Shown in pieces: positions 24,199 to 30,391 of a stretch of DNA of 33,748 nucleotides. The notes under the pieces are model-generated. The model had not been told where the DNA came from, ran no database searches, and was given only the letters and a program-made list of their open reading frames with translations. The position numbers were made by a program, and so were the translations under genes. Every line of letters starts with the position of its first letter. Within the stretch, counting starts at the first letter, position 1. This DNA comes from a virus: IMG/VR virus record IMGVR_UViG_3300027749_000313, positions 1 to 33,748 of that record. The stretch is one strand, 5' to 3'.

Positions 24199-24462
24199 TT
24201 AATCCATCTCGACAACGCAAGCCACGTCGCCTTCCTGGATCAACTGGTGATCTTCCCCGTCGATTTTGTGAACCGGCCAATCCAAATACGTGCCATTGCC
24301 GTATTTGATGCGTTCTCCAACTTTCACGTCGTTCACCTTGGGGCCAATGGCCACAATTGTGCCTTCGTTAAATTTTTCCTTGTTTTCCACAATCAAAACC
24401 TCCGACAATTTGCGGACGATGGGTTTGACCAGGACGCGATCATGCAACGGCGTGATTACCAT
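24199..24462 (-). CDS. Phage-encoded GroES-like co-chaperonin
   Basis: An 87-aa Cpn10-fold protein. It opens with ITPLHDRVLVKP, the universal GroES start. The mobile loop region contains SEVLIVENK, whose hydrophobic triplet should dock on host GroEL. GTIVAIGPKVNDVKVGERIKY gives the barrel core, and GDVACVVE closes the fold. Slightly shorter than the usual ~97 aa. By analogy with T4 gp31 and with P22 coat's GroEL/ES dependence, it probably helps fold the coat protein. GGAAGG precedes the ATG. It overlaps the upstream zinc-finger-like gene by 23 bases. Confidence 0.9.
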   Translation of the reverse strand: MVITPLHDRVLVKPIVRKLSEVLIVENKEKFNEGTIVAIGPKVNDVKVGERIKYGNGTYLDWPVHKIDGEDHQLIQEGDVACVVEMD

Positions 24463-24676
24463 TTTTTGGCTTCCTTCCAGGCTTTTTACGTTCGGGGGTT
24501 GTAATGGTGTCCGTCATAATGTCGTAAACCGGCAAGGCGGCAATCATGATTCCACCTTGATGTTCACCGCACCAATCGGAATGATGTTTGTTCACGGGAT
24601 TCGGATTGCGTCGGCAAGTTCCCAATACCTGGGCATTCAAAAAATAAACGCAATTTTTGCAAGTCGGTTTATCCAT
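24440..24676 (-). CDS. Small Cys-rich (zinc-binding-like) protein
   Basis: A 78-aa protein with CKNCVYF, GTCRRNP and DWCGEHQ, giving four Cys plus nearby His in a spacing that suggests one zinc site; the C-terminus is basic (ERKKPGRKPKNGNH), consistent with nucleic-acid binding. I use the ATG at 24676, which has GGGG 9 bases upstream; an in-frame GTG at 24691 would add five residues. Small proteins with the same CxxC...WCGEH pattern are common in phages; function unknown. Confidence 0.75.
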   Translation of the reverse strand: MDKPTCKNCVYFLNAQVLGTCRRNPNPVNKHHSDWCGEHQGGIMIAALPVYDIMTDTITTPERKKPGRKPKNGNHAVA

Positions 24677-24851
24677 TAGGGATTTCCCCACTCAAAACGC
24701 CTTTATTTAAGGCATTGGCAAAATCCGCGCCCAAAGTCTTACCTTCGGCTTCGTGCATTCTATTTTCCCGATGCTGCGCTGGCGTAATCAGCGGTTCCAC
24801 GGTAGATGGCGTCACTAATGGCGCCTGATTTTTTGGCTCGTTCAAGGGCAT
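24669..24851 (-). CDS. 60-aa small protein overlapping the P-loop gene
   Basis: A 60-aa acidic/Pro-rich protein (NQAPLVTPSTVEPLITPAQH; GADFANALNKGVLSGEIPNG). The ATG at 24851 has AGGAAAGGA seven bases upstream, a strong site, although it lies 92 bases inside the end of the P-loop gene in another frame. A second ATG at 24758, just after that gene's stop, would give 29 residues. I cannot tell which is used. The downstream part is the only coding option between its neighbours. Confidence 0.58.
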   Translation of the reverse strand: MPLNEPKNQAPLVTPSTVEPLITPAQHRENRMHEAEGKTLGADFANALNKGVLSGEIPNG

Positions 24852-25668
24852 CTTGTAATCCTTTCCTCACTTCATTTTCATTCAGTTTAGGCAACTTGTC
24901 AAGGCTGCTTAACTGCGCTTTACCGGCGCCGCGACTGTTGTCGATTACCTGAATCTGCACTTTGCCGTTGTTTCGGTATTTGGCTGCCAATTGTTCAATT
25001 GCCTGGCGGGCGCCTAAATGGGTTTTTGCGTGTTCGGAAAGCGGGACGGTGCGGCCAGTTCCCATTTGTGATTCCATGCGTGACGCCCGTTTCAATGCGC
25101 CATTTTCCAAGGCTTCCACGGGGTCGCGGTAGGTGTAAATAATGTGAACCTTGCGGCCAGCATCTAAGGCTTGGGCGACCTTTTTATCTGCCGTTTCAAA
25201 CTTGTTCATGTTTGTGTCGTAAGTCATTTCAGCCCGACCGGCTGCTGAATTGACCTTTTTCACAATGTCCATACCGGTGGTTTTGCCCGCGCCTGTGCCG
25301 CCAGCCGTAAAAATTACGGTTGCGTCGCGGCCTTCAGGCGTTCTTTGCGCCAACTTGTCAGCGTATAAACGCTTGACAAAGGCGCTGGATGGTTCGTGTA
25401 CGTCAGCGGATTTGGTGCGGTCAGCGCGGTAATGCGGTGACAGTTCGCGGGCCACATCGGTGTTTAATGTGCGCCCTTCGTCTGATTCAGCCAGGCGTTG
25501 ATATTCCGCAACCAGGCCAGGATAGTCCGTTTGCAAGCGATCGGCATATTCCGACGTAATCGGATTTACCGGTTCCTCTTGCGGCTGCGGTGCAAGCGCG
25601 GAAAGCCGGTTTCCGACCGGCGGCTGGCCTGGCTGCACCGCCGCCATTGCTGACAGCGGGGTGGCCAT
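24760..25668 (-). CDS. Zeta-toxin-like P-loop kinase domain protein
   Basis: A 302-aa protein. Residues 115-131 read DATVIFTAGGTGAGKTT, a strong Walker A preceded by a beta strand. The segment before it (VARELSPHYRADRTKSADVH) and after it (KVHIIYTYRDPVEALENGAL, RTVPLSEHAKTHLGARQAI, KVQIQVIDNSRG) match the layout of zeta-toxin/UDP-sugar-kinase-like folds, including those in phage polyvalent proteins. The first 60 residues are Pro/Gln-rich. No epsilon-type antitoxin is adjacent. The substrate is unknown. TAATG overlaps the upstream stop. It is in the late region, so it may act late in infection or be packaged. Confidence 0.8.
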   Translation of the reverse strand: MATPLSAMAAVQPGQPPVGNRLSALAPQPQEEPVNPITSEYADRLQTDYPGLVAEYQRLAESDEGRTLNTDVARELSPHYRADRTKSADVHEPSSAFVKRLYADKLAQRTPEGRDATVIFTAGGTGAGKTTGMDIVKKVNSAAGRAEMTYDTNMNKFETADKKVAQALDAGRKVHIIYTYRDPVEALENGALKRASRMESQMGTGRTVPLSEHAKTHLGARQAIEQLAAKYRNNGKVQIQVIDNSRGAGKAQLSSLDKLPKLNENEVRKGLQDALERAKKSGAISDAIYRGTADYASAASGK

Positions 25669-27955: not shown

Positions 27956-28341
27956 TTAGGCATCCTCAAATGTTGAGTCATTTCGCGTAATTTGGCCAAC
28001 GCTTCCACCTTTGCTTTTTCGGTGGCAATTCGTTCGTGCAATGTCGGCTGCCTGGTTATCAGCGTTTCAGGTTTGTCAGGAATGCGCGGGCCATCGATCA
28101 ACAATTTTTTGAATGCCAGGGCTGACGGTGGCCGGTCGGGGTTCATGTGCTGCAACGCGTAATCCATCTTTGGCCGGTAGGTCAGGCCGCGGCCGCATTC
28201 GTCAATCCACACTTGGCGAATCAGGTTGGGGTCAACGTCGCGCCAATGGTTGGCAAACGTGGCGCCATAAATCGCGTTCATTTTGCTGAACACGTAATCA
28301 AAGCCGCTTTCGGCATCACAAAAGTCGTTTGCGTTCCACAT
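27952..28341 (-). CDS. Replication-associated protein (lambda P-like position)
   Basis: A 129-aa protein: FSKMNAIYGATFANHWRDVD, then WIDECGRGLTYRPKMDYAL and PDRPPSALAFKKLLI. This pattern recalls the C-terminal domain of phage P-type replication proteins that recruit the host helicase, and it follows a DUF1376 initiation-type gene just as P follows O. GGAGGTG precedes the ATG, which lies 26 bases inside the upstream gene. No Walker motif, so it is not a DnaC-type ATPase. The P-like role is tentative. Confidence 0.62.
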   Translation of the reverse strand: MWNANDFCDAESGFDYVFSKMNAIYGATFANHWRDVDPNLIRQVWIDECGRGLTYRPKMDYALQHMNPDRPPSALAFKKLLIDGPRIPDKPETLITRQPTLHERIATEKAKVEALAKLREMTQHLRMPK

Positions 28342-29080
28342 CGGACACCTCCACGGTTTGCTCAGGTTTTGCCCAAAACGGGGCTGGTACTGGTTTTGGT
28401 GTTGCCAGGCCGCGGGTAAGGGCTGCCATTTGCGCCAAACGGGCCTCTGACGCTGTTTTCTTGGCTGCCTGTTGCCGACGTACCCAATTGCGCCAGGTGG
28501 CCGTCCAATCGGTTTTTACGCCCTTTTGGCCAGGCTGCGCGATCCAGTAGTCGCGGAACCCCTCAAACGTTTCCCGCGGATCAAGTTCAGGCCGGTGTTG
28601 GTGACAAAAAGAAACCCATTCATCCGACAGCGGAAAGTCAGGGGCCAGGCGCGTCCCGCGCTGGCTCTCTCTCTTTGGTTTTATGGTTAATGGTTTGTGG
28701 TTAGTGGTTAGTTGCACATCCGTTGAACACTCGTTCAACACCTGTTCAACACCTGTTGCGCTGTTGTGCTTCCGACGTTCAGCGGATGCCCGACCGGCGT
28801 TGGATTTTTTCTCCAGGAATGTTCGGTACTCTGCGATTTCCTGGTCGCATCGTGTGTGATGCCATCCGTTTTCAGCCAGCCAAAAAAACGATTCCAACAG
28901 CAATTCCGTTTCTTCAACGGTCGCGCCAATTTGGAAAGCCAGGATTTTGGTGTCAGGCTTCAGGGGTTTTTCGGTGTCGTAGTACATCCACAACAACCGC
29001 AAATAGGCCATTGCTTGGCCGTCGGTCAACCTGGCGGTGGCTTTTATAAAGTCACCAATGTGATGCTGGTAATAGTGCAT
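28316..29080 (-). CDS. DUF1376/YdaU-like replication initiation protein
   Basis: A 254-aa protein. The N-terminal 85 residues (MHYYQHHIGDFIKATARLTD, AYLRLLWMYYDTEKPL, FFWLAENGWHHTRCDQEI) form the DUF1376 winged-helix-like domain found in phage replication initiators. A basic/disordered linker (residues 90-155) follows, then FPLSDEWVSFCHQHRPEL and DYWIAQPG...DWTATWRNWVRRQ, the C-terminal domain common to these proteins. The ATG at 29080 (GAGGG upstream) is better than a GTG seven codons earlier. It probably opens the origin and loads the replisome. Confidence 0.82.
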   Translation of the reverse strand: MHYYQHHIGDFIKATARLTDGQAMAYLRLLWMYYDTEKPLKPDTKILAFQIGATVEETELLLESFFWLAENGWHHTRCDQEIAEYRTFLEKKSNAGRASAERRKHNSATGVEQVLNECSTDVQLTTNHKPLTIKPKRESQRGTRLAPDFPLSDEWVSFCHQHRPELDPRETFEGFRDYWIAQPGQKGVKTDWTATWRNWVRRQQAAKKTASEARLAQMAALTRGLATPKPVPAPFWAKPEQTVEVSDVERKRLL

Positions 29081-29182
29081 TTTTCCCTCACTCTGTCCCA
29101 CATAAAAAAGAAATCACGGCGGCGGGTGGGCTCGCTTTTCGGGTGGCTCATGACTTCCACCCTAGCCGGATTCCAACAAATT

Positions 29183-29341
29183 CTAGCCCTTAAACCATTT
29201 CGGACGCAACGCTTTCAACTGCCAAACCCGTGCCGACGGAACATCGCTTCCCCATTGGCTAACGGCCGCCCTGGTGATTCCCAACAGTTCGGCCAAAGCC
29301 TTGGCCGATCCAGCCAGTTTGATTGCTTTTTCTTTATCCAT
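29183..29341 (-). CDS. Cro-like helix-turn-helix repressor (52 aa)
   Basis: Too short for the usual cut-off. The product reads IKLAGSAKALAELLGITRAA then VSQWGSDVPSARVWQLKALR: helix, turn, helix with Q-W at the start of the recognition region, very like P22 Cro ('AVAKALGISDAAVSQWK'). It is transcribed leftward from a promoter whose predicted start coincides with its ATG. The adjacent TTAAG-N4-CTTAA sites are its likely operators. No CI-type partner was found. Confidence 0.85.
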   Translation of the reverse strand: MDKEKAIKLAGSAKALAELLGITRAAVSQWGSDVPSARVWQLKALRPKWFKG

Positions 29342-29347
29342 CTTTCC

Positions 29348-29376
29348 ATGTTAAGCGGCCTTGCAAATCTTGTCAA
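29348..29376 (-). promoter_or_regulatory. Leftward sigma70-like promoter for cro-like/replication operon
   Basis: Minus strand TTGACA, 17-bp spacer, TAACAT. The -10 ends seven bases before the first base of the Cro-like gene's ATG (29341), so the mRNA should start at or next to that ATG, giving a leaderless or nearly leaderless transcript. Operator A overlaps the -10 and spacer, which predicts autorepression. Confidence 0.78.
29351..29364. promoter_or_regulatory. Operator A, TTAAG-N4-CTTGC
   Basis: Copy of the inverted repeat TTAAG-N4-CTTAA with two mismatches in the right arm. It covers the -10/spacer of the leftward promoter and is ten bases from the Cro-like ATG. Confidence 0.6.
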
Positions 29377-29397
29377 GAGTGGCAATACCTGACAAAG

Positions 29398-29411
29398 TTA
29401 AGGGGGCTTTA
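29398..29411. promoter_or_regulatory. Operator B, TTAAG-N4-CTTTA
   Basis: Copy of the inverted repeat with one mismatch, midway between the two divergent promoters (47 bp from A, 36 bp from C, start to start). Confidence 0.62.
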
Positions 29412-29421
29412 CAAATAGTGT

Positions 29422-29450
29422 TTGACAATGTTGTTAAGCGGGCTTAATAT
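29422..29450 (+). promoter_or_regulatory. Rightward sigma70-like promoter 1
   Basis: TTGACA, exactly 17 bp, TAATAT: near-consensus. The predicted start is the A at 29457, first base of ATGCCCTAAC. It drives the LPD29 gene and the early-right operon. Operator C lies across the spacer and -10. Confidence 0.9.
29434..29447. promoter_or_regulatory. Operator C, TTAAG-N4-CTTAA (perfect)
   Basis: A perfect TTAAGC-GG-GCTTAA inverted repeat placed between -35 and -10 of rightward promoter 1. Binding here would directly block RNA polymerase. Confidence 0.72.
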
Positions 29451-29456
29451 TCACCT

Positions 29457-29502
29457 ATGCCCTAACAAATTGCACGGGGTCTTTTAAAAGGAAATCAAAA
29501 TG
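29457..29502 (+). repeat. Leader repeat copy 1 (ATGCCCTAAC ... GGGTCTTTTAAAAGG)
   Basis: The 5' leader of the LPD29 gene. It shares ATGCCCTAAC, GGGTCTTTTAAAA, GGAAAT and AAAATG with the leader at 30355-30391; copy 1 has an extra nine or so bases in the middle. It includes a TTTTAAAA palindrome next to the AAAGGA ribosome site. Confidence 0.82.
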
Positions 29503-30048
29503 TCAAATCGTAAATACCTCTCATGCGCCGAAACCGCAAAACTCATTCGCGCTGCTCTCAAAGAATCTTTTCCTGGCGTAAAGTTTGCCGTCCGTTCTAG
29601 CGTTTATTCCGGCGGCGCCAGCATCAATATTCGTTACGAAAACGGCCCAACTTACAACCAGGTCAAAGCGGTGGCCGGTATGTTTGAAGGTTCTTATTTC
29701 GACGGAATGACCGATTACAAAGGCAGCAATTACGGCGCCTTGGATGGCCAGGAAGTTCGGTTCGGTGCTGACTTTGTTTTTGTCAATCGCAAATTTACAA
29801 AAGCATTTTTGGAAGGCGCAGTCGAAGCGGCTTGCAAATACTACGGTTACGCAATGCCTGTCATTACCGACGGTTACGACAGCGCCTACATTGCCGACCG
29901 GTTGGATTACGAAGCAAATCGCTGCATCATGGCCAAGGTTGAGGAAATCAGCCTTTGCGATACAAAGGAAAGCGCCACCCTGGCCCGTGTCGGGTTCTTG
30001 GGTGACGACGGTTACGGTTGGAATGCTGTTGGCCGCAAGGCCGCATAA
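29500..30048 (+). CDS. Stand-alone LPD29-domain protein
   Basis: A 182-aa protein. AETAKLIRAALKESFPGVKF, then AVRSSVYSGGASINIRYENG, and FDGMTDYKG...GADFVFVNRKF match the LPD29 domain, originally noticed inside large polyvalent proteins carried by phages and conjugative elements; activity unknown, with host takeover or defence evasion suggested for the class. It is the first gene of the early-right operon, under a near-consensus promoter and operator C, so it is probably made at once after infection. AAAAGGA precedes the ATG. Confidence 0.83.
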   Translation: MSNRKYLSCAETAKLIRAALKESFPGVKFAVRSSVYSGGASINIRYENGPTYNQVKAVAGMFEGSYFDGMTDYKGSNYGALDGQEVRFGADFVFVNRKFTKAFLEGAVEAACKYYGYAMPVITDGYDSAYIADRLDYEANRCIMAKVEEISLCDTKESATLARVGFLGDDGYGWNAVGRKAA

Positions 30049-30058
30049 AGGGGACGCC

Positions 30059-30157
30059 ATGAACCGCGAACCAACCGATTGGGAAGTTTTGGGGATGGCG
30101 CTGGTGGCAGCACCGGCCATCTATGTTTTGATTTGGCTTGCAATGGCCATCTTTTAA
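30059..30157 (+). CDS. 32-aa single-pass membrane peptide
   Basis: A short gene with AAGGGGA just before the ATG. It encodes NREPTDWEVL followed by one hydrophobic helix (ALVAAPAIYVLIWLAMAIF) reaching the C-terminus, so it should be a tail-anchored inner-membrane peptide. It lies between two well-placed early genes. Function unknown; membrane or superinfection effects are possible. Confidence 0.62.
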   Translation: MNREPTDWEVLGMALVAAPAIYVLIWLAMAIF

Positions 30158-30167
30158 GGGGAACGAA

Positions 30168-30335
30168 ATGACAATCCGAATCACCAGGGTACATCGCGGG
30201 GGCCGCGTGTTCTACGCCGCCACCGTCAGCGGCGTTTACCTGGAACGCGCCAGCCTGGCCGAATTGCGTGAAGCAATTGCAGTTCGTGAAAGATTTGCAA
30301 AAATATTTGCTGATCCTATTGACACCGCAAGTTAA
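30168..30335 (+). CDS. 55-aa basic early protein
   Basis: A 55-aa protein, TIRITRVHRGGRVFYAATVS then a helix (ASLAELREAIAVRERFAKIF). A beta-beta-alpha layout of this size could bind nucleic acid, but I recognise no family. The ATG at 30168 has AAGGGGA upstream; the open frame extends ten codons further up without a ribosome site. Rightward promoter 2 begins inside its 3' end. Confidence 0.68.
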   Translation: MTIRITRVHRGGRVFYAATVSGVYLERASLAELREAIAVRERFAKIFADPIDTAS

Positions 30336-30348
30336 GTTGGCTTAAAAT
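30319..30348 (+). promoter_or_regulatory. Rightward sigma70-like promoter 2
   Basis: TTGACA, 18 bp, TAAAAT, overlapping the end of the 55-aa gene. The predicted start at 30355 is again the A of ATGCCCTAAC. Operator D sits in the spacer and -10, just as operator C does in promoter 1. Confidence 0.78.
30332..30345. promoter_or_regulatory. Operator D, TTAAG-N4-CTTAA (perfect arms)
   Basis: The same inverted repeat with both five-base arms intact, 0.9 kb from the other three, in the spacer/-10 of rightward promoter 2. Its matching position argues for a shared regulator. Confidence 0.7.
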
Positions 30349-30354
30349 CACATC

Positions 30355-30391
30355 ATGCCCTAACGGGTCTTTTAAAAAGGAAATTAAAATG
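30355..30391 (+). repeat. Leader repeat copy 2
   Basis: Shares ATGCCCTAAC, GGGTCTTTTAAAA, GGAAAT and AAAATG with copy 1 at 29457-29502. Together with promoter and operator, about 70-80 bp are duplicated as a cassette. Confidence 0.82.

What the first reader, a model, noticed from the sequence alone, without database searches (positions are those of the whole stretch)
29348..30348. Four-copy TTAAG-N4-CTTAA operator network with a tiny Cro-like protein
The inverted repeat occurs at 29351, 29398, 29434 and 30332. Three copies overlap the spacer or -10 of separate promoters (one left, two right); one lies between. The 52-aa Cro-like gene is next to the cluster. One small repressor may coordinate both operons and a distant internal promoter.
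Basis: partly seen in the sequence, partly recalled or inferred. Interest (0 to 1): 0.8.

Follow-up and report, generated by a model that had tools for sequence, protein, structure and literature searches.

The report
Cro-only switch in freshwater phages
A family of uncultivated freshwater viruses of bacteria appears to time its early genes with one tiny repressor protein (Cro) that acts at a set of matching DNA sites, although the partner repressor that Cro normally opposes, and the genes for dormancy, were not found in any of the genomes examined.

Summary
The site cluster is real, though "four copies" is loose: two are exact TTAAG-N4-CTTAA, one has 1 mismatch and one has 2. A matrix built from relatives ranks them 1st, 2nd, 3rd and 5th in the whole window. 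All 81 distinct cro-upstream regions found carry at least one site and 79 carry two or three; 70 have the first site exactly 12 nt from the cro start. P22 OL/OR carry the same motif, and the 52-aa protein belongs to the P22 Cro family (Pfam; best structural match 1rzs). Outer operator bases shift with one recognition-helix residue (A or Q). The window is a near-whole, circularly permuted P22-like podophage genome. In 25 near-complete relatives no integrase, resolvase or S24 repressor was found. Best reading: a CI-less, Cro-only early-gene shut-off circuit with one site at each of three promoters plus an auxiliary site. Beyond the finding: (i) a fifth site, conserved in 21/21 genomes, hidden in a Zeta_toxin-like gene over the -35 of a predicted intragenic promoter; (ii) rightward promoters are copies of a promoter-operator-leader cassette with a covarying 5' hairpin, in some genomes accompanying inserted genes. 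Binding, transcription and lifestyle are untested. New variant of a known kind.

The parts
29183..29341 (-). cro: 52-aa P22-type Cro (proposed sole early repressor); predicted leaderless mRNA
   Evidence: PF14549 P22_Cro E=1.1e-12; PHROG 409; AF2 model pLDDT 88.7, best PDB match 1rzs P22 Cro TM 0.79, rmsd 1.0; ATG begins 7 nt past the -10
29350..29365 (.). O1 (GTTAAGCGGCCTTGCA), overlaps spacer/-10 of the leftward promoter
   Evidence: 2 mismatches; first site exactly 12 nt from the cro start in 70 of 81 distinct upstream regions; matrix rank 5
29397..29412 (.). O2 (GTTAAGGGGGCTTTAC), auxiliary site between the divergent promoters; overlaps the pL -35 in the Q-type clade
   Evidence: 1 mismatch; matrix rank 3; conserved
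29433..29448 (.). O3 (GTTAAGCGGGCTTAAT), in spacer/-10 of pL1
   Evidence: exact; matrix rank 1; conserved
30331..30346 (.). O4 (GTTAAGTTGGCTTAAA), in spacer/-10 of internal promoter pL2
   Evidence: exact; matrix rank 2; present at internal promoters of relatives
24898..24913 (.). O5: intragenic operator-like site (minus strand GTTAAGCAGCCTTGAC) overlapping a TTGACA -35
   Evidence: matrix rank 4; AAG-N4-CTTGACA invariant in 21/21 genomes; Leu256 CTT 21/21, Asp257 GAC 21/21, Ser254 AGY 21/21; among the top matrix hits in each of 21 genomes
24885..24900 (.). O5b: weaker overlapping second site (GACAAGTTGCCTAAAC on the minus strand)
   Evidence: matrix rank 6; recurs beside O5 in several relatives
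24874..24902 (-). predicted intragenic promoter pInt (TTGACA-17-GAAAAT)
   Evidence: in all 21 genomes the second hexamer is xAxAxT
24669..24851 (-). 60-aa ORF overlapping the zeta-like gene out of frame, preceded by GGAAAGGA; first gene after pInt
   Evidence: same start position and related sequence in all 21 genomes
24760..25668 (-). Zeta_toxin-like P-loop protein (302 aa) that contains O5 and pInt
   Evidence: PF06414 E=1e-12
29348..29376 (-). leftward promoter pR (TTGACA/TAACAT) for cro and the replication/nin genes
29422..29450 (+). rightward promoter pL1 (TTGACA/TAATAT)
30319..30348 (+). internal rightward promoter pL2 (TTGACA/TAAAAT)
29459..29480 (+). 5'-leader hairpin of pL1 (GCCC...GGGGU) before UCUUUU and the ribosome site
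   Evidence: 44 distinct leaders: 96.2% of cells paired; third pair C-G in 34, G-C in 9, broken in 1
30357..30368 (+). 5'-leader hairpin of pL2 (GCCC-UAAC-GGGU)
   Evidence: same leader family
29500..30048 (+). LPD29-domain protein, first gene of the rightward operon
   Evidence: PF18847 E=4e-23
28316..29101 (-). DUF1376 / primosomal replication protein downstream of cro

Best explanation
This is the early control region of a P22-like podophage family without a detectable CI-type repressor. The 52-aa P22-type Cro is made early from the leftward promoter (predicted leaderless). Its dimer binds TTAAG-N4-CTTAA-like operators: O1 over its own promoter, O3 over pL1 and O4 over pL2, with O2 as an auxiliary site. 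As Cro accumulates it damps cro itself, the replication/nin operon and the recombination/early operon together. The circuit is thus a one-way early-gene shut-off timer, not a lysis-lysogeny switch. The same sites probably extend to an intragenic promoter before an overlapping small gene, groES and the packaging genes. Shown here: sites, conservation, protein family and fold, no detected CI/integrase. Inferred: binding, repression, timing and a strictly lytic lifestyle.
For: Matrix ranks and shuffle controls. 81 of 81 distinct upstream regions have at least one site and 79 have 2-3, against 83 of 4050 random segments of the same loci with two or more. Position fixed at 12 nt from the cro start in 70/81. 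P22 OL and OR each hold an exact copy. P22_Cro family and fold. Outer half-site base: G in 28/42 for Q-type helices against 18/169 for A-type; on the LPD29 tree the residue changes 9 times and the base broadly follows. No PF00589, PF00717 or PF00239 match in 25 records; HTH_3 matches are Cro apart from one weak sub-threshold hit in a 640-aa frame of G021. G002, with 123-base end overlap, runs across the window's ends with a 3-base gap, and 8 of 21 assembled records have such 123-127-base overlaps. Only one distant LPD29 hit, next to an unrelated primase-helicase gene, in 84,980 bacterial and archaeal species genomes. Lambda Cro partially represses pL and pR and is needed for efficient lytic growth (PMC2327240).
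Against: No binding, transcription or plaque data. Promoters are consensus matches only. cro and its intergenic region are adjacent and can move together, so their covariation is partly linkage; A-type O1 sites also often carry G in the right half, and some Q-type genomes keep T. Q-type sites are not simple GTAAG palindromes. The operator centre is G+C-rich, which lowers affinity for P22 c2 (PMC3711457). A repressor of an unrecognised family, or a host factor using the same sites, is not excluded.
Confidence: 0.8

Rival explanations
1. Ordinary temperate-phage immunity region in which the true repressor (CI/C2) lies elsewhere or is unrecognised, and the TTAAG sites are primarily its operators, with Cro secondary.
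For: In temperate relatives the same motif sits between an S24 repressor and a P22-type Cro: Xanthomonas phage PBR31 39913 and L046.
Against: No integrase, resolvase or S24 protein in 25 records, eight of those assembled being circular by end overlap. Only 158 bp separate cro and LPD29 in the window; inserted genes seen there in relatives are rightward early genes. No prophage of the lineage found in genome contigs.
Confidence: 0.08
2. The sites are bound by a host regulator, or are promoter-linked AT-rich palindromes with no phage regulator.
For: Three of four sites overlap -10 regions, where TTAA is common.
Against: O2 is outside a -10; O5 is intragenic with synonymous constraint; same motif as P22 operators; outer bases shift with the Cro helix residue.
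Confidence: 0.06
3. The 52-aa protein is mainly a YdaS-type toxin or antitoxin rather than an early repressor.
For: PF15943 YdaS_toxin also matches, E=5e-9.
Against: P22_Cro scores better (E=1.1e-12); the gene lies at the cro position with a conserved operator array; no partner gene recognised.
Confidence: 0.03
4. Cro at O5 (centre about -38.5 of pInt) activates rather than represses, making Cro an early-to-late switch.
For: O5 invariant core in 21/21 genomes upstream of groES/packaging genes.
Against: The site overlaps the -35, which usually means repression; in the Q clade the same CTTGACA geometry occurs at pL.
Confidence: 0.1

Closest known systems
Salmonella phage P22 immC (Cro, C2, OL1-3, OR1-3)
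   Same: Cro family and fold; TTAAG-N4-CTTAA operators at divergent early promoters; replication and nin genes downstream of cro, recombination genes on the other arm.
   Different: No c2 or c1 gene and no integrase found; 158-bp intergenic region with three sites; additional operators at an internal promoter and inside a coding sequence.
Virulent Streptococcus thermophilus phages with a cro-like gene but no integrase (PMC5338259)
   Same: Cro-like regulator retained in lytic phages.
   Different: Different phylum of hosts and phage type; the passage read describes no operator network.
Xanthomonas phage PBR31 (MT119766)
   Same: 49% identical portal protein; P22-type Cro; exact TTAAGTGAGCTTAA next to the repressor start.
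   Different: Temperate gene set: S24 c repressor, integrase, excisionase.
Caudoviricetes sp. MW202520 (Manatee Spring)
   Same: 67% identical portal; P22-type Cro; TTAAG-like sites flank the divergent promoters; no annotated integrase.
   Different: More divergent Cro; sites 7/8 only.
N15 Cro / phiKO2 and PY54 Cro
   Same: Similar all-helical fold (6on0, 2hin).
   Different: Temperate telomere phages with a prophage repressor.

Membership tests
P22-type Cro protein (PF14549) | Profile match above gathering score | tested here: met
   48 bits against cut-off 30.2
P22-type Cro protein (PF14549) | All-helical P22/N15 Cro fold | tested here: met
   1rzs TM 0.79, rmsd 1.0; Foldseek probability 1.00, though E-value 9e-3 because the protein is tiny
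P22-type Cro protein (PF14549) | Specific binding to operators at divergent early promoters | not testable with these tools
   sites present and conserved; binding not measured
P22-like operator | TTAAG-N4-CTTAA core at early promoters | tested here: met
   two exact, two degenerate sites; same motif in P22 OL/OR
Lambdoid immunity region (CI/Cro bistable switch) | CI/C2-type repressor gene between the divergent early promoters | tested here: not met
   158-bp intergenic region; no S24 match in 25 records
Temperate phage | Integrase or recombinase | tested here: not met
   PF00589 and PF00239: 0 of 25; records may be incomplete, but several are circular
YdaS toxin family | PF15943 match and toxicity | tested here: inconclusive
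   PF15943 matches less well than P22_Cro; toxicity not testable

The most novel reading that the evidence does not exclude
With CI absent, Cro has become the phage's general clock. Its regulon spans every early promoter plus a hidden intragenic promoter that heads an overlapping gene, groES and the packaging genes. The regulon grows by copy-and-paste: a ready-made promoter-operator-hairpin-leader cassette accompanies genes newly inserted into the early operon.
Probability: 0.35. Interest if true: 0.7.

Novelty: new variant of a known kind. Interest (0 to 1): 0.5.

Why it matters
In lambda-like phages it is hard to separate what Cro does against CI from what it does to early genes. Here is a widespread natural lineage that keeps Cro and its operators under clear selection although no CI was found. 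That argues that damping early transcription is a sufficient reason to keep Cro, and it can be tested directly with one 52-aa protein and short DNA fragments. The intragenic O5/pInt element and the mobile promoter-operator-leader cassette are further concrete, testable predictions.

Tried and rejected
Leaderless dipeptide minigene at pL (ATG-CCC-stop at +1): rejected, the stop is not conserved (variants ATGCCGGAAACGG, ATGCCGCAGCAAGCGG, ATGCCCCAGC), whereas the hairpin is. Rfam: no match in the window. The genome-contig hit in Paraburkholderia elongata lies next to a primase-helicase gene and has no operator array, so it is not this lineage. Rhodoferax phage P26218 shares the P22-like head but its early region has a DNA polymerase and no comparable array. 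Raw motif counts at <=1 mismatch were not used as evidence because controls give similar numbers. Simple 'A = TTAAG, Q = GTAAG' was too strong and was reduced to a shift in base frequency. A literature search for CI-less Cro in virulent phages with strict terms found nothing; S. aureus phage SA97 was read but lacks both cI and cro. An interleaved inverted repeat (GCCNN-7-NNGGC) around the operator occurs in 17 of 106 distinct cassettes but not in the window's own sites, so it was left out of the mechanism.

Full report
Observation. The window is itself a whole virus record (33,748 b). Exact TTAAG-N4-CTTAA occurs twice, at 29434 and 30332, against 0.01 expected. With one mismatch 29398 joins, and also 24899; 29351 needs two mismatches. 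So the coordinates are right and 'four copies' is right only for a degenerate motif.

More than chance. Counting degenerate matches is weak evidence, since reversed-pattern controls give up to 4 per genome. I therefore used relatives. Scans with Cro and with the first rightward gene gave 127 loci from IMG/VR. In 81 distinct cro-upstream regions, 55 have three sites scoring at least 7/8 within 127 nt, 24 have two and 2 have one; of 4050 random segments of the same loci 3719 have none (some of the rest overlap the true region). The first site is exactly 12 nt from the cro start in 70 of 81. A matrix trained on A-type relatives without the window's kin ranks the four sites 1, 2, 3 and 5 in the window; shuffles reach the second-weakest score 0.005 times on average.

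The protein. The 52-aa product matches PF14549 P22_Cro at E=1.1e-12 and YdaS_toxin less well. A model from 30 orthologues has pLDDT 88.7 and its best PDB match is P22 Cro 1rzs (TM 0.79, rmsd 1.0), then N15 Cro. P22's own annotated OL and OR regions each contain an exact copy of the motif. The residue at A25, which I align with P22 c2 Val33 (from memory of the P22 literature), is A or Q in most relatives. On the LPD29 tree it changes 9 times and the outer half-site base shifts with it: G 28/42 for Q, 18/169 for A. This is supportive, not proof, because cro and its intergenic region are linked. Hall, Lefevre and Cordes 2005, cited in PMC4997575, described such helix/half-site correlations for Cro proteins.

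Genome context and lifestyle. Leftward from cro run a DUF1376/primosomal protein, NinB, an HNH nuclease, a Zeta_toxin-like protein, GroES, terminase, P22-like portal and coat; rightward run LPD29, ERF and a YqaJ exonuclease. This is a lambda/P22-like early layout with nothing but 158 bp between cro and the rightward gene. Relative G002, with a 123-base end overlap, crosses the window's ends with a 3-base gap, and 8 of 21 assembled records have 123-127-base overlaps; the window is therefore a nearly complete, circularly permuted genome. In 25 records there is no tyrosine integrase, resolvase or S24 repressor, and the HTH_3 hits are Cro apart from one weak sub-threshold hit in a 640-aa frame of G021. 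In 84,980 bacterial and archaeal species genomes only one distant, unrelated LPD29 hit was found. The temperate relative PBR31 (portal 49%) has an S24 repressor, a P22-type Cro, an integrase and the same operator core. The simplest reading is a lineage without CI, probably lytic; whether CI was lost or never present is open.

Mechanism. Shown: sites, conserved geometry, protein family. Inferred: Cro made from a leaderless mRNA (its ATG starts 7 nt past the -10; the spacing is kept in most relatives) binds O1, O3 and O4 and so damps its own operon, pL1 and pL2 together. Lambda Cro does this partially at pL and pR and is needed for efficient lytic growth (PMC2327240). O2 is auxiliary here; in the Q clade the corresponding site overlaps the pL -35.

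A fifth site. Matrix rank 4 (24898) lies inside the Zeta_toxin-like gene. In all 21 genomes the sequence AAG-N4-CTTGACA is invariant. The Leu codon is CTT in 21/21, the only zero-entropy six-fold column of 33; the Asp is GAC in 21/21 and the Ser AGY in 21/21. It overlaps the -35 of a predicted intragenic promoter, followed by a ribosome site and an out-of-frame 60-aa ORF present at the same place in all 21 genomes, then groES and the packaging genes. The -35 explains CTTGACA but not the upstream AAG. I take it as a likely fifth member of the regulon; the sign of regulation is unknown.

Cassettes. pL1 and pL2 share not only the operator but a leader: a hairpin two bases from the predicted start, UCUUUU, ribosome site. 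Over 44 distinct leaders 96.2% of cells pair and the third pair is C-G in 34 and G-C in 9. In several relatives (L119, L118, L127, L056) an extra rightward gene is inserted with its own copy of the cassette. Internal cassettes of some relatives also carry a second, interleaved inverted repeat (17 of 106).

Known versus new. Cro, its operators and Cro-like genes in virulent phages are known (PMC5338259). What is different is a conserved, apparently Cro-only regulon of at least five sites, one hidden in a coding sequence, in a large uncultivated freshwater family. I call it a new variant of a known kind.

Noticed in passing
window 24669-24913 (minus strand): Operator-like site, TTGACA/GAAAAT promoter, ribosome site and an out-of-frame 60-aa ORF nested in the 3' part of a Zeta_toxin-like gene; conserved in all 21 genomes examined, with synonymous-site constraint.
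   Followed up: yes
window 29457-29486 and 30355-30375: Short 5'-leader hairpin (GCC[C/G]...[G/C]GGU) plus UCUUUU before the ribosome site, with compensatory changes in 9 of 44 distinct leaders; no Rfam match. Could be an mRNA stabiliser or a weak attenuator.
   Followed up: partly
L119, L118, L127, L056 upstream of the LPD29 gene: Extra early genes inserted between pL1 and LPD29, followed by a further copy of the promoter-operator-leader cassette, suggesting cassette duplication with gene gain.
   Followed up: partly
L152, L161, L163, L166 internal cassettes: A second inverted repeat (GCCNN-7 nt-NNGGC) interleaved with the operator, its arms changing together (CGGGC, TGGGC, CTGGC, TTGGC); possibly a terminator for the upstream gene.
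   Followed up: partly
window 29341-29353: The cro start codon lies 7 nt past the -10, predicting a leaderless mRNA; the spacing is kept in most relatives.
   Followed up: partly
L042, L043, L044: Cro variants with recognition helices TRFAIYLWK or TRPAIYQWK and ATAAG-N4-CTTAT operators, a possible third specificity class.
   Followed up: no
window 24199-24462 (minus strand): Phage-encoded GroES-like co-chaperonin (PF00166) just upstream of the packaging genes.
   Followed up: no
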